Assembly: GCA_945861435.1 (NCBI GenBank)
Contig: CAMAUX010000016.1
Coordinates: 1-64,000 of the forward strand
From: Chthoniobacter flavus
GTDB taxonomy: Bacteria; Verrucomicrobiota; Verrucomicrobiia; Chthoniobacterales; Chthoniobacteraceae
Direction: 5' to 3'
DNA length: 64,000 nucleotides
Within the stretch, counting starts at the first letter, position 1. Each line of letters starts with the position of its first letter. This document shows, piece after piece, positions 1 through 62,524 of this stretch. The position numbers and the translations under genes are program-made. The notes beneath the pieces are model-generated. The model saw only the letters and a program-made list of their open reading frames with translations, had not been told where the DNA came from and made no database searches.

Positions 1-116
1 GGGGCGGTGCGTGGGGGCGGTGCGTGGGGGCGGTGCGTGGGGAGTTGTGCGAGGGGAGTTGTGCGAGGGGAGTCGTGCGAGGGGAGTCGTGCGTGGGGAG
101 TCGTGCGTGGGGAGTG
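1..116. repeat. G-rich 13-14 bp tandem repeat
   Basis: Eight consecutive units of the form GTGCGTGGGGGCG (two copies of 13 bp) grading into GTGCGWGGGGAGTY (six copies of 14 bp) run from position 7 to 116, with a partial unit at 1-6. The plus strand has regular G4-G5 runs every 13-14 bases. The repeat continues off the left edge, so the total copy number is unknown. From 117 to 197 the sequence stays G-rich but loses the period. It lies downstream of the 3' end of the minus-strand AraC gene, and I see no convincing gene in it. Confidence 0.8.
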
Positions 117-2698: not shown

Positions 2699-4420
2699 AT
2701 GAGGCTTCCCGTCGCAGTGTGTGCGGTCGCGCTTTGGATTTTCGGTGCAGCAACCGGGATCTCGGCGCAATTCGATCTCGCGCAGTTTCATCCGGAGCAG
2801 GATGCGGATGCGGCGCTGCATGCCTGTTTTGAAGCGGTTTCCAAGGCGGGCGGCGGCAGCGTGACAATTGCGCCGGGGGACTATCATTTGAAGGGGGAGA
2901 GGCCGGTGCCGTTGTGTTCACGGACCACGGTGAACGCGCATGCTGCGCGGTTTCATCTGCCGGAGACGCTGGGGGACAGGGCGCGGATCGTGGTGTTTGA
3001 AGGGACGGACGTGAGTGACTTTGTGTGGAGCGGCGGGCATTTCATCGGGCACTGCTTTGATCACCGGCGCGCGCCCACCACGCCCAACACATGGGAGCCC
3101 AACGTGAACACGCGGATCCTGGTGGTGCATACGAGCCAGGGTGGGGTGACGGAGCGGTTGCGTTTTGAGGGGATCTCATCCGAGCGCGTGGCGGGTGCGG
3201 TGATTCATGTGGAGGGCTTGGCGAAGCCGGGCTCGGAATCGGAGGTGGCGACGTATGCGCGGGGTGTGACGGTGCGGGATTGCACGCTGGTGGACAGCGG
3301 GAAGTTCATGTGGGACTACGGGCTGTTGTGGCAGATTTTGGTTTGGCCCGAGGAGTATCAGCCAGCCGATGTGGCGATGGCGCAGCGTTATTTCCGCAAC
3401 GAGGTGATTCGGGGGCCGGTGGGGATGAGCGACGGGGATGATCGAGTGGTTTTCGATAACAGCCGCAGCCCCGTGGCGGTGTCGGGTATTCCTGCAAATG
3501 CGACGGATGCGGCCCGCAAGTCGCTATGCTTTTATGGAGACGCGCTGCCGGAGAACGTGGTGCGCGGGCGGCGTTATTTTGTGGTGGAGTCGACGCCCGG
3601 GTTTATCCGGGTGAGCGAGCAACCGGGCGGTGAGCCGCTGCGTTTCCGCGGGAGCGCGGGGCCCGGGGCGAGGATGATGGTGAATCTGCAGGCGGCGTTT
3701 TTCGAGTTGTACGCTCCGACGGGTGCGGGGCCGGGGAAGGGAGGGGTGGACATTGTGTGTGCGAAGCAGGTGCATGTGAGCGGATGCAATCTGAGCGCGT
3801 TGGGGGACACGATGCATGTGCAGCGGTGCGAGGATGTGGTGTTTGCGAACAACCACATCACGGGCTCGCGGATGGGGGCGTTCTTTCTGGCGGAGTACTG
3901 CCGCAATGCGGTGATCACGGGCAACATCGTGGATGGGACCAACGGGTCGCGGGTGATCAGTCTGGAGAAGTCTTCGGAGAACGTGACGATGACGGGGAAC
4001 ACGTTTCGCAACGGGGGGCGCGGTGCGTGGATCAACCAGCCTCGGAATCTTGTGATGGTGGGGAATGTGTTTTTGAACAACACCACCAAGTGCGAGCCGG
4101 ATCCGTGGCGCGGTCGGCGGACCTTTCGCACGGGGGATTGGGAGAGCTATCCCGAGATGTACTTCACCCTGCACCAGGCGAACGGGAAATACGGGCCGGT
4201 GATCGTGCGCGACAATCTCTTCGTGCTCGGGCCGCACGGGTCGTCCGAGGTGGTGACTTTCGCGCCGGGTGGGAGCGGGATCCAGTTTACGGGGAATACA
4301 TTCGTTGGCCGGCCCGGGGTGATCAGCGTGGATCCGGAATGCGCGGATGCAGTGGTGAGGGATAATGCCGGGGTGACCTTGCGCACAGAGTCCGCCAAGG
4401 CGCAGAGCGGCAACTGGTGA
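2699..4420 (+). CDS. Secreted right-handed parallel beta-helix protein (pectate-lyase-like fold)
   Basis: About 573 residues with a signal peptide (MRLPVAVCAVALWIFGAATG, cleavage near ISAQ). It opens with a pectate-lyase superfamily start (aa about 25-70: a DADAALHACFEAVSKAGGGS region, then PGDYHLKG). Residues about 350-520 show coil repeats such as FANNHITGSRMGAFFLAEYC and NVTMTGNTFRNGG, the asparagine-ladder pattern of parallel beta-helices. Such proteins are usually polysaccharide lyases or hydrolases, or adhesins; no specific catalytic set is recognisable here. The start is 28 bp after the SIS gene. Context with an AraC regulator, sugar kinase and sulfatase suggests extracellular or periplasmic glycan processing. 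Confidence 0.75.
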   Translation: MRLPVAVCAVALWIFGAATGISAQFDLAQFHPEQDADAALHACFEAVSKAGGGSVTIAPGDYHLKGERPVPLCSRTTVNAHAARFHLPETLGDRARIVVFEGTDVSDFVWSGGHFIGHCFDHRRAPTTPNTWEPNVNTRILVVHTSQGGVTERLRFEGISSERVAGAVIHVEGLAKPGSESEVATYARGVTVRDCTLVDSGKFMWDYGLLWQILVWPEEYQPADVAMAQRYFRNEVIRGPVGMSDGDDRVVFDNSRSPVAVSGIPANATDAARKSLCFYGDALPENVVRGRRYFVVESTPGFIRVSEQPGGEPLRFRGSAGPGARMMVNLQAAFFELYAPTGAGPGKGGVDIVCAKQVHVSGCNLSALGDTMHVQRCEDVVFANNHITGSRMGAFFLAEYCRNAVITGNIVDGTNGSRVISLEKSSENVTMTGNTFRNGGRGAWINQPRNLVMVGNVFLNNTTKCEPDPWRGRRTFRTGDWESYPEMYFTLHQANGKYGPVIVRDNLFVLGPHGSSEVVTFAPGGSGIQFTGNTFVGRPGVISVDPECADAVVRDNAGVTLRTESAKAQSGNW

Positions 4421-4444
4421 GGAGGGGGGCGTCGGCGCGCTCAC

Positions 4445-4585
4445 ACTCTTACTTTTACTCTTACTCTTACTTTTACTCGTACTTGTACTCCCTCCTCGGA
4501 TGGCTCGGCTGCAGGGTGAGTAAAAGTACGAGTACGAGTAGGAGTAAAAGTACGAGTAGGAGTAGGAGTAGGAGTAAGAGCAGGA
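4445..4585. repeat. Inverted arrays of a hexanucleotide repeat forming a long hairpin
   Basis: The left arm (about 4445-4492) is eight units of the type TACTYT/TACTCG. The right arm (about 4518-4585) is eleven units of the complementary type GAGTAA, AAGTAC and GAGTAG. They are separated by about 25 bp containing a short GC-rich segment. The arms are complementary in register, so DNA or RNA could fold into an imperfect stem of about 45 bp. It sits between the beta-helix stop and the sulfatase start. It may terminate, process or stabilise the transcript, or be a slippage-prone repeat; no T-run follows. Confidence 0.85.
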
Positions 4586-4656
4586 AGGCGCGGGGGAAGT
4601 CCTGTCTCGCTTGAGAAGGCGTGGTCTGTCAGAAAAAGGAAATCTTCCCACCCCCC

Positions 4657-6183
4657 ATGAAACACGGAATCCCCCTCCTCGGTGCGCTCCTTCTTGCGCT
4701 GTTCCTTCCCGTTCACGACGGCCTGCACGCCGCCGCGCCCCGCCAGCCGAACATCATCCTCGTGATGCCGGACGATGTGGGATACGGCGATTACGCCTGT
4801 CTGGGGAGCCCCGTGATGCGCACGCCCTCGGTGGATGCATTCAAGAAGCAGAGCCTTCTTTTCACCCAGTTTCATGTGAGCCCGACGTGCTCGCCGTGCC
4901 GGTCGGCGCTGATGAGCGGGCGGCATGAGTTCAAGAACGGGGTGACGCACACGATCCTTGAGCGGGAGCGGATGAGCCTCCACACCTTCACGCTCGCGCA
5001 GATGCTGCGAAGCGTCGGCTACACATCCGGGATCTTTGGTAAATGGCATCTGGGGGACGAGGACGCGTACCGTCCTGAGAGCCGCGGGTTTGACGAGGTG
5101 TACATTCATGGCGGAGGCGGCATCGGCCAGATTTATCCGGGTTCCTGCGGGGATGCGCCCGGGAACACGAACATCAACCCGGCGCTCTGGCACAACGGGC
5201 GTTTTGAGAAGACGACGGGTTACTGCACGGACCTGTTCTTTGCCCAAGCGATTCGCTGGATGGAGGCCAAGCGCGGGGCGGGTCAGCCCTTCTTTGCGTA
5301 CATCCCTCTCAATGCGGCGCACGGGCCGCACGTGGTTCCGCGTGAATACTACGAGCAGTATCTGGGGAAGCCGGATGTGGACGAGGACACCGCCAAGTTT
5401 TTCGGGATGCTGGAGAACGTGGACACGAACTTTGGCAAACTGCTCGCGAAGCTTGGAGAATGGGGCATCGCAGACGAGACCTTGGTCCTCTACATCGCCT
5501 CCGACAATGGCGGCACCGCGGGGGTGAAGTTTTTCAATGCGGGCATGCGGGGAACGAAGGGGACTCCGTTTCAGGGGGGCACCCGTGTCCCGTGTTTTGT
5601 GCGGTGGCCCGCGGGTGGTGTGCCTGCGGGGGTTGAATGCGACGCGCTGAGCGCTCATCTCGACCTTTTCCCGACTCTTGCGGAACTCACGGGTGCGGTC
5701 CTTTCCGATGATGTGAAGAAGCAGGTGGAAGGCCGCAGCCTTCTGCCGCTCTTCAACAATCCGAAGGCGGACTGGGGCGCGCGGACGCTGGTCCATCACG
5801 TGGGTCGCTGGCCGAAGGGCGGGGTGGCGGATGGGAAGTTCAGCAACTGCGCGATTCAAGACGCGCGGTTTTCGCTGGTGAACAACAAGTTCCTTTATGA
5901 TCTGAAGGCTGATCCGGGCGAGACGACGGACGTGCTCGCGCAGCACCCGGATGTGGCTGTGACGCTGCGTGCGGCGTATGAGCGGTGGTGGGGGGAAGTG
6001 CAGCCTCTGCTGGTGAATGAGGACGTGACGCCGCCCTCCATCAACCCCTTCCAGGCGCTCTATTATCAGCAGTTTGGCGGAAGCCCCACGCCTGCGGATC
6101 TTCGGCGTATGGATCCGAACAGAGCCGATGGTGAAGGCGGAGCGCCGGGAGCGAAGAAGCGCAGGGGCAAGGCAGCGAACTGA
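4657..6183 (+). CDS. Secreted arylsulfatase-family sulfatase (Cys type)
   Basis: About 508 residues with a signal peptide (MKHGIPLLGALLLALFLPV...LHAAA). The metal site PNIILVMPDDVGYGDYAC is followed by the active-site motif at Cys78, in C-S-P-C-R-S-A-L-M-S-G. This matches the CxPxR sulfatase signature, in which the Cys becomes formylglycine. GKWHLGDE and the later YIASDNGGT and GTRVPCFVRWPAG complete the alkaline-phosphatase-like fold. It hydrolyses sulfate esters, here probably on sugars or polysaccharides in the periplasm. It needs a formylglycine-generating enzyme or anSME, which is not in the window. A GTG at 4621 is a less likely start because the signal peptide would be buried. It follows the hairpin array downstream of the beta-helix gene. 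Confidence 0.9.
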   Translation: MKHGIPLLGALLLALFLPVHDGLHAAAPRQPNIILVMPDDVGYGDYACLGSPVMRTPSVDAFKKQSLLFTQFHVSPTCSPCRSALMSGRHEFKNGVTHTILERERMSLHTFTLAQMLRSVGYTSGIFGKWHLGDEDAYRPESRGFDEVYIHGGGGIGQIYPGSCGDAPGNTNINPALWHNGRFEKTTGYCTDLFFAQAIRWMEAKRGAGQPFFAYIPLNAAHGPHVVPREYYEQYLGKPDVDEDTAKFFGMLENVDTNFGKLLAKLGEWGIADETLVLYIASDNGGTAGVKFFNAGMRGTKGTPFQGGTRVPCFVRWPAGGVPAGVECDALSAHLDLFPTLAELTGAVLSDDVKKQVEGRSLLPLFNNPKADWGARTLVHHVGRWPKGGVADGKFSNCAIQDARFSLVNNKFLYDLKADPGETTDVLAQHPDVAVTLRAAYERWWGEVQPLLVNEDVTPPSINPFQALYYQQFGGSPTPADLRRMDPNRADGEGGAPGAKKRRGKAAN

Positions 6184-61810: not shown

Positions 61811-62524
61811 ATGAAGTCCCCCGTCATTTTTTCGTTGTCGCTTCTTTCCAGTGTAGGTTTTGCGCTGTCTACAGATGCCGGTCCTGAGCCGCGGGGCGAG
61901 TGCCCTTCTGAGAAACATGGGCACCATGGCGGGCATGGCAGGCACCACAGGCATAGACACCACGGAGCACCATGGATGCGCGGGCCGCGTGGACCACAGG
62001 GTCCGCAGGAGGGGATGCCGCACGGAACGCCGTGGATGCGCGGGCCACGCGGACCGCAGGGTCCGCAGGAGGGGATGCCGCACGGAGCGCCGTGGATGCG
62101 CGGGCCACGCGGACCGCAGGGTCCGCAGGAGGGGATGCAGCACGGAGCGCCGTGGATGCGGGGACCTCGTGGACCGCAGGGTCCGCAGGAGGGGATGCCG
62201 CACGGGCCCGGTCGTCCGCCTGAAGGTGCGCGTCCTGAAGAGCGCCGTGAGCGGGGTCCGCGCGAGGGAGTAAAGAATGGGCCTGATCGTCCGCCTGAAG
62301 GTGCGCGTCCTGAAGAGCGCCGTGAGCGGGGTCCGCGGGAGGGAGTGCAGAACGGGCCTGATCGTCCGCCTGAAGGTGCGCGTCCTGAAGAGCGCCGTGA
62401 GCGGGGTCCGCGCGAGGGAGTGAAGAATGGGCCTGATCGTCCGCCTGAAGGTGCGCGTCCTGAAGAGCGCCCTTCGGAGCGGGGTGAACGGATTCCGCGC
62501 GAGGGTGAGCCGCGGCCGCTTTGA
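61811..62524 (+). CDS. Secreted His-rich, collagen-like tandem-repeat protein
   Basis: A 237-residue protein with a signal peptide (MKSPVIFSLSLLSSVGFALS, then TDA) and no other known domain. Residues 36-51 are His-rich (HGHHGGHGRHHRHRHH), a likely metal-binding patch. Residues 52-131 are four 20-aa units (GAPWMRGPRGPQGPQEGMPH). Residues 132 to about 231 are 25-aa units (GPDRPPEGARPEERRERGPR plus EGVKN), three full and one degenerate. GPQGPQ is collagen-like. There is one Cys (position 31). Expected periplasmic or extracellular and intrinsically disordered. Divergent from the two-component system, like CpxP or ZraP, though not homologous to them. Confidence 0.8.
   Translation: MKSPVIFSLSLLSSVGFALSTDAGPEPRGECPSEKHGHHGGHGRHHRHRHHGAPWMRGPRGPQGPQEGMPHGTPWMRGPRGPQGPQEGMPHGAPWMRGPRGPQGPQEGMQHGAPWMRGPRGPQGPQEGMPHGPGRPPEGARPEERRERGPREGVKNGPDRPPEGARPEERRERGPREGVQNGPDRPPEGARPEERRERGPREGVKNGPDRPPEGARPEERPSERGERIPREGEPRPL
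61964..62203 (+). repeat. Four in-frame 60-bp coding tandem repeats
   Basis: Units at 61964-62023, 62024-62083, 62084-62143 and 62144-62203, differing at only a few positions (some synonymous), encode the 20-aa collagen-like unit. A length multiple of 3 means gain or loss of units keeps the frame. Confidence 0.95.
62204..62503 (+). repeat. Four in-frame 75-bp coding tandem repeats
   Basis: Units at 62204-62278, 62279-62353, 62354-62428 and a degenerate fourth at 62429-62503 encode the 25-aa Pro/Arg/Glu unit. Near-identity at the nucleotide level indicates recent expansion, independent of the preceding 60-bp array. Confidence 0.93.

What the first reader, a model, noticed from the sequence alone, without database searches (positions are those of the whole stretch)
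4445..4585. Long inverted hexanucleotide arrays between the beta-helix and sulfatase genes
Two opposite-strand arrays (NNTACT and AGTANN, 8 and 11 units) face each other across about 25 bp, so a single transcript could form a 45-bp-class imperfect stem. Such paired hexamer arrays are not a standard terminator type. They may be a recurring intergenic element, an RNA stability device, or a mutational hot spot.
Basis: seen in the sequence. Interest (0 to 1): 0.55.

Follow-up and report, generated by a model that had tools for sequence, protein, structure and literature searches.

The report
Widespread hexamer-arm intergenic hairpin repeat
Two facing arrays of a six-base motif between two genes form one copy of a hairpin repeat that recurs between genes in this genome and in many related bacteria; comparison of related species suggests that such hairpins come and go like small mobile DNA, rather than acting as an ordinary stop signal for transcription.

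Summary
The pair folds far better than shuffles and is no chance match. It is one copy of a recurring intergenic class. The same genome has 139 four-unit matches (backwards control 0) in about 23 clusters. Across the phylum, 47 of 387 sampled genomes carry GAKTAN arrays, usually as (NTAATC)n-loop-(GATTAN)n. Five hexamer positions are almost fixed and the sixth varies freely. The sixth bases of the two arms do not pair beyond chance. The arm order is nearly constant, except in one genus. In relatives, elements share genus-specific cores and sometimes outer flanks, and are present or absent at the same site in sister species, which fits small dispersed (MITE/REP-like) DNA. They are not U-tail terminators, show no sense-strand RNA preference, match no Rfam family, and no sampled Y1/RAYT gene was flanked by such arrays. 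The window copy has a unique core and flanks, so its own mobility is inferred from relatives. I found no description of this repeat in the held literature. What recognises the pentamer is unknown.

The parts
4444..4490 (-). left arm: array of NNTACT units (AGTANN on the - strand), 7 perfect units at 4450-4489 plus a degenerate one at 4444
4490..4518 (.). core/loop between the arms (29 nt), unique in this genome
4519..4582 (+). right arm: array of AGTANN units, 10 perfect units at 4519-4576 plus a degenerate end unit
2717..4420 (+). upstream neighbour: Beta_helix protein gene (not part of the element)
4657..6183 (+). downstream neighbour: Sulfatase gene (not part of the element)

Best explanation
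The feature is one copy of a dispersed intergenic palindrome found widely in Verrucomicrobiota (and seen in Planctomycetota loci). Its arms are arrays of a degenerate hexamer, a fixed pentamer GAKTA (here AGTA preceded by a purine) plus one free base, facing outward from a core of about 10-60 nt. Shown: recurrence, intergenic placement, pentamer constraint, near-constant arm order, genus-specific cores, and presence/absence at orthologous sites in a related genus. Inferred: the elements are small mobile or selfish DNA of the MITE/REP type, copied by machinery acting in trans that recognises the pentamer arrays or the hairpin as DNA; arm lengths then change by slippage. Any effect on the beta-helix/sulfatase transcript would be a by-product.
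For: 139 matches in the genome, control 0. 47 of 387 genomes in the phylum. Arm order TAATC-first in 18 of 23 array genomes against the opposite order in 3 of 23, and 14:6 own, 46:0 in five other genomes, 23:1 in genome-contig loci. Pentamer positions deviate in 5 of 400 against 40 of 80 sixth bases in G326. Shared cores and outer flanks among copies. Presence/absence at three orthologous sites of genus g133. 2 of 115 overlap a called gene.
Against: The window copy's core and flanks are unique in its genome and no orthologous site could be read, so its own movement is not shown. No target duplication beyond about 2 bp. No transposase or recurrent neighbour found: 0 of 29 Y1 loci carry a real array, largest neighbour family 4 of 177 genes. 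Some own-genome arrays are perfect repeats that simple slippage would explain. One genus has the arms the other way round.
Confidence: 0.55

Rival explanations
1. Locally grown microsatellite: short palindromic seeds expanded by replication slippage and template switching, with no mobility and no function; the shared hexamer reflects a mutational bias of these genomes.
For: Own-genome arrays are often perfect AGTAAG or AGTACGAGTAAA runs, the cores and flanks are mostly unrelated among clusters, and several loci are tandem duplications.
Against: Five fixed positions with one free position, the same pentamer in many genera with different cores, near-constant arm order, and shared cores and flanks in other genera are not expected of slippage alone.
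Confidence: 0.2
2. A non-standard RNA device: a long hairpin that ends transcription in both directions or protects or processes the 3' end of the upstream mRNA.
For: Very stable fold; in the own genome 0 of 18 classified clusters lie between divergent genes against 13 of 64 other spacers; the window copy folds better on the sense strand (-73.0 v -55.5).
Against: No U-tract (12 of 206 arm ends); no general sense-strand advantage (30 of 67); 14 of 84 classified elements in other genomes are between divergent genes, like other spacers (28 of 144); free bases of the arms do not pair beyond chance.
Confidence: 0.15
3. Fixed binding array for a host protein (nucleoid, replication or gene regulation) that reads the GAKTA pentamer; the inverted arms place two oriented arrays.
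For: Pentamer fixed and sixth base free; the same pentamer is used with unrelated cores in many genera.
Against: Patchy distribution (340 of 387 genomes without a 5-unit array; of 4 same-genus genomes including own, 2 have 5-unit arrays) and site presence/absence between sister species.
Confidence: 0.1

Closest known systems
REP / BIME / REPIN repetitive extragenic palindromes with RAYT (Y1) transposases
   Same: Intergenic, palindromic, dispersed, many copies in some genomes; the held literature reports GTAG-type REPs in the verrucomicrobium O. terrae (PMC3733652, passages).
   Different: REPs are 20-40 bp with a GTAG or CGTC tag (PMC3733652, passages); these are about 80-170 bp with hexamer-array arms, and sampled Y1 genes are not flanked by them.
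MITEs (miniature inverted-repeat elements)
   Same: Small, non-coding, inverted repeats, insertion polymorphism; outer inverted repeat in G151.
   Different: No clear target duplication and no autonomous parent found; the window copy is not part of a copy family.
Intrinsic (U-tail) transcription terminators
   Same: Stable stem-loop between genes.
   Different: Much longer stem, no U-tract, not confined to gene 3' ends in relatives.
Short tandemly repeated repetitive (STRR) heptamer arrays of cyanobacteria (recalled; one paper naming them seen as a listing)
   Same: Short-unit intergenic arrays.
   Different: As recalled these are direct heptamer arrays; here the unit is 6 and the arrays are paired in inverted order.

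Membership tests
REP/RAYT system | 20-40 bp palindrome with a GTAG or CGTC tag at one end | tested here: not met
   Definition from PMC3733652 passages; the elements read are longer and built of hexamer arrays, and I saw no such tag by eye.
REP/RAYT system | RAYT/Y1 transposase gene flanked by the repeat | tested here: not met
   0 of 29 fetched Y1 loci carry an array of 3 or more units; one has a 2-unit match. Only the best loci were fetched, with about 1.5 kb on each side.
MITE | Multiple copies with a common sequence | tested here: inconclusive
   Met in G214 and G151; not met for the window copy.
MITE | Terminal inverted repeats and target-site duplication | tested here: inconclusive
   Outer inverted repeat in G151; duplication at most about 2 bp or ambiguous at the empty sites.
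MITE | Autonomous parent element with a transposase | tested here: inconclusive
   No recurrent neighbour gene among 177 flanking genes; the genomes were not searched for an outer-end parent.
Intrinsic terminator | Stem-loop followed by a U-tract | tested here: not met
   0 in window 4000-5200; T-rich tract after 12 of 206 arm ends.
Known structured RNA (Rfam) | Match at a family's gathering score | tested here: not met
   0 matches in the window and in 14 element loci.
STRR arrays | Direct heptamer arrays in cyanobacteria | not tested
   Recalled only; the unit length here is 6.

The most novel reading that the evidence does not exclude
A class of DNA hairpin spread over Verrucomicrobiota and at least some Planctomycetota in which outward-facing GAKTAN arrays are the recognition end of an undescribed mobilisation or array-writing machine: one that keeps five positions and leaves the sixth free (for example a polymerase writing GAKTAN repeats on both 3' ends of a core before insertion, or a recombinase counting pentamers).
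Probability: 0.18. Interest if true: 0.75.

Novelty: new variant of a known kind. Interest (0 to 1): 0.5.

Why it matters
It points to a hairpin repeat that recurs across a whole phylum, uses nearly the same hexamer arms in distant genera with different cores, and appears undescribed in the literature I could search. Such arrays create spurious dipeptide-repeat reading frames (one search lists one here with SYSYSY runs), could serve as markers for comparing strains, and pose a testable question: what reads a GAKTA pentamer every six bases?

Tried and rejected
Orthologous empty site for the window copy: same-genus genomes share the sulfatase at 55-62% identity but no synteny around it, so nothing could be read. 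N-N' covariation across arms: not above chance in any genome. Arm covariation at position 3 (T/G) is strong overall (371/6/4/64), but most of that is between lineages, so I do not use it; at position 1 in the own genome, one element per locus, p=0.03, weak. Sense-strand RNA preference: rejected overall, although the window copy itself is the strongest case in its favour. Common neighbour gene: none beyond 4 members among 177 flanking genes; the largest own-genome group is sulfatases (window, L040 twice, L047), which I treat as chance because sulfatases are abundant (11 to 128 matches per genome in the six relatives searched), but I did not count them in this genome. Presence in viruses: 1 IMG/VR contig for the GATTAN pair pattern, 0 for the GAGTAN pair pattern. 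Plasmids: no match to window 4380-4660 (low-complexity filter on). An early guess that the host was Opitutaceae was wrong: G002, same genus, has a contig of the same length (60,674) as a Chthoniobacteraceae MAG record whose locus holds the same arrays; the window genome's own name was not shown. A TRAP-like reading (GAG repeats) is recalled and was not tested. Literature: 7 searches gave no description of this repeat; passages read in PMC12699852, PMC3733652 and PMC4060949; all other papers seen only as listings.

Full report
Observation. The bottom-strand array has 7 perfect TACT units at 4450-4489 and the top-strand array 10 perfect AGTA units at 4519-4576, 29 nt apart; with degenerate end units these become 8 and 11. 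All 13 window matches to three AGTANN units lie here; 100 shuffles gave none. The + strand RNA folds at -117.4 kcal/mol, z -7.8, into a nearly continuous stem; the - strand at -93.8, z -6.0; single-stranded DNA z -5.7. No U-tail terminator was found and no Rfam family matches the window. The arrays lie between a Beta_helix protein gene and a Sulfatase gene, both on +.

The same genome. AGTANNx4 has 139 matches in 5.35 Mb and its backwards control 0; 43 array starts of three or more units were listed. I fetched the clusters and read them. Of 23 clusters, 13 lie between genes in tandem, 5 between convergent genes, 0 between divergent genes, 1 overlaps a called gene and 4 are at stretch ends; other spacers of 60 bp or more in the same loci are 43 tandem, 8 convergent and 13 divergent. 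Genes were called with my own codon-usage script, so these counts depend on it. With arrays masked, the window core and flanks match no other cluster; several loci are local tandem duplications (L033, L039, L046, L049).

The phylum. A 5-unit GAKTAN pattern matched 47 of 387 genomes drawn from the phylum, and 40 of 198 genera, with controls near zero. An AGTANNx5 search of 57 near relatives (own genome included) matched only own and one same-genus genome. Most other genera use GATTAN. In 23 array genomes, inverted pairs of the form TAATC-array, loop of 6-36, GATTA-array occur in 18, with 2 to 128 matches per strand (overlapping registers count several times); the opposite order occurs in 3, of which two (G154 43, G260 58) are of one genus and one has a single match. 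With one rule on fetched loci, -,+ against +,- was 14:6 in the own genome, 46:0 in five other genomes, and 23:1 in the loci returned by the genome-contig scan. Copies within a genome are not independent, so I give no p-value.

The unit. For units lying between perfect neighbours, positions of the pentamer deviate in 5 of 400 cases (G326), 8 of 300 (G191) and 12 of 392 at positions 2-5 (own, where position 1 is G or A), whereas 40 of 80, 35 of 60 and 50 of 98 sixth bases differ from the commonest base. Neutral drift after amplification would not spare five positions. The sixth bases of the two arms do not complement each other beyond chance in any genome. On the sense strand of tandem genes, G.U (21) and A.C (19) are equal, and the sense fold is the better one in 30 of 67 elements. 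The window copy is the strongest case for a sense-strand advantage (-73.0 v -55.5), but it is one case.

Cores and flanks. In other genera the core is shared among copies: G151, G393, genus g133, G214, and genus g89 (G209 and G070 share one). In G214, 24 aligned copies also share about 40 bp outside each array; in G151 the outer flanks form an inverted repeat. So there the arrays are the internal stem of a longer dispersed element.

Insertion polymorphism. In genus g133 I could read three of four element sites tried across three species. L172 second element: present in G326, absent in G411, and a different palindrome at that spot in G191. L165 second element: present in G326, absent in G191 and G411. 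L165 first element: present in G326 and G191, with about 190 extra bases inside the G191 core, absent in G411. Target duplications are at most about 2 bp or ambiguous.

Context in relatives. Of 84 classified elements in other genomes, 14 lie between divergent genes (28 of 144 other spacers), so gene 3' ends are not a rule. Overall 2 of 115 clusters or pairs overlap a called gene. A T-rich tract follows 12 of 206 arm ends (no background was computed for this). No Y1/RAYT gene sampled is flanked by a real array (0 of 29; one has a 2-unit match), and Y1 genes occur in 31 of 33 genomes, array-bearing or not. No gene family recurs among 177 flanking genes beyond 4 members. Rfam gave nothing for 14 element loci.

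Verdict. Shown: a recurring intergenic hairpin class with a constrained pentamer, a nearly fixed arm order, and presence/absence between sister species in one genus. Inferred: mobility as small DNA of the MITE/REP kind, by an unidentified machine; for the window copy this rests on relatives. It works like a dispersed palindromic repeat, but I do not file it as a REP (tag and RAYT tests not met) nor firmly as a MITE (duplication and parent not shown). Seven literature searches found no description.

Noticed in passing
G191 L244 and G326 loci: A second palindromic repeat with arms of the CCCTCACCCCAACCCTCTCCC type sits at the orthologous site of a G326 GATTAN element and shares part of its core (CTCTGGYCTG); its arms also have a rough 6-base period.
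   Followed up: partly
G154 and G260 (genus g118): The arms are in the opposite order (GATTA array first, TAATC second), 43 and 58 matches, unlike all other genera sampled except one match in G070.
   Followed up: no
G411 L256, orthologous to L165 first element: A direct heptamer array CCCTGAA (3 units) lies where sister species have the GATTAN hairpin.
   Followed up: no
L034 and L046 (own genome C8, C52): A separate 120-bp repeat, 89% identical, lies next to arrays at both loci; L046 repeats a 504-bp unit.
   Followed up: no
window 61961-62471: Tandem repeats of 60 bp (4.1 copies) and 75 bp (3.6 copies) lie back to back.
   Followed up: no
window 7-115: Tandem repeat of a 14-base unit, 7.9 copies, 93% matches.
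   Followed up: no
L040, L047 and the window: Three own-genome array loci adjoin sulfatase genes; sulfatases are abundant in relatives (11 to 128 matches per genome), so this may be chance.
   Followed up: partly
L311 (IMG/VR contig, 769-835): One contig of the viral collection carries a GATTAN hairpin pair.
   Followed up: no
window 3524-4651 (-): A 375-aa reading frame with SYSYSY runs crosses the arrays; it is a by-product of the hexamers and a likely annotation artefact.
   Followed up: no
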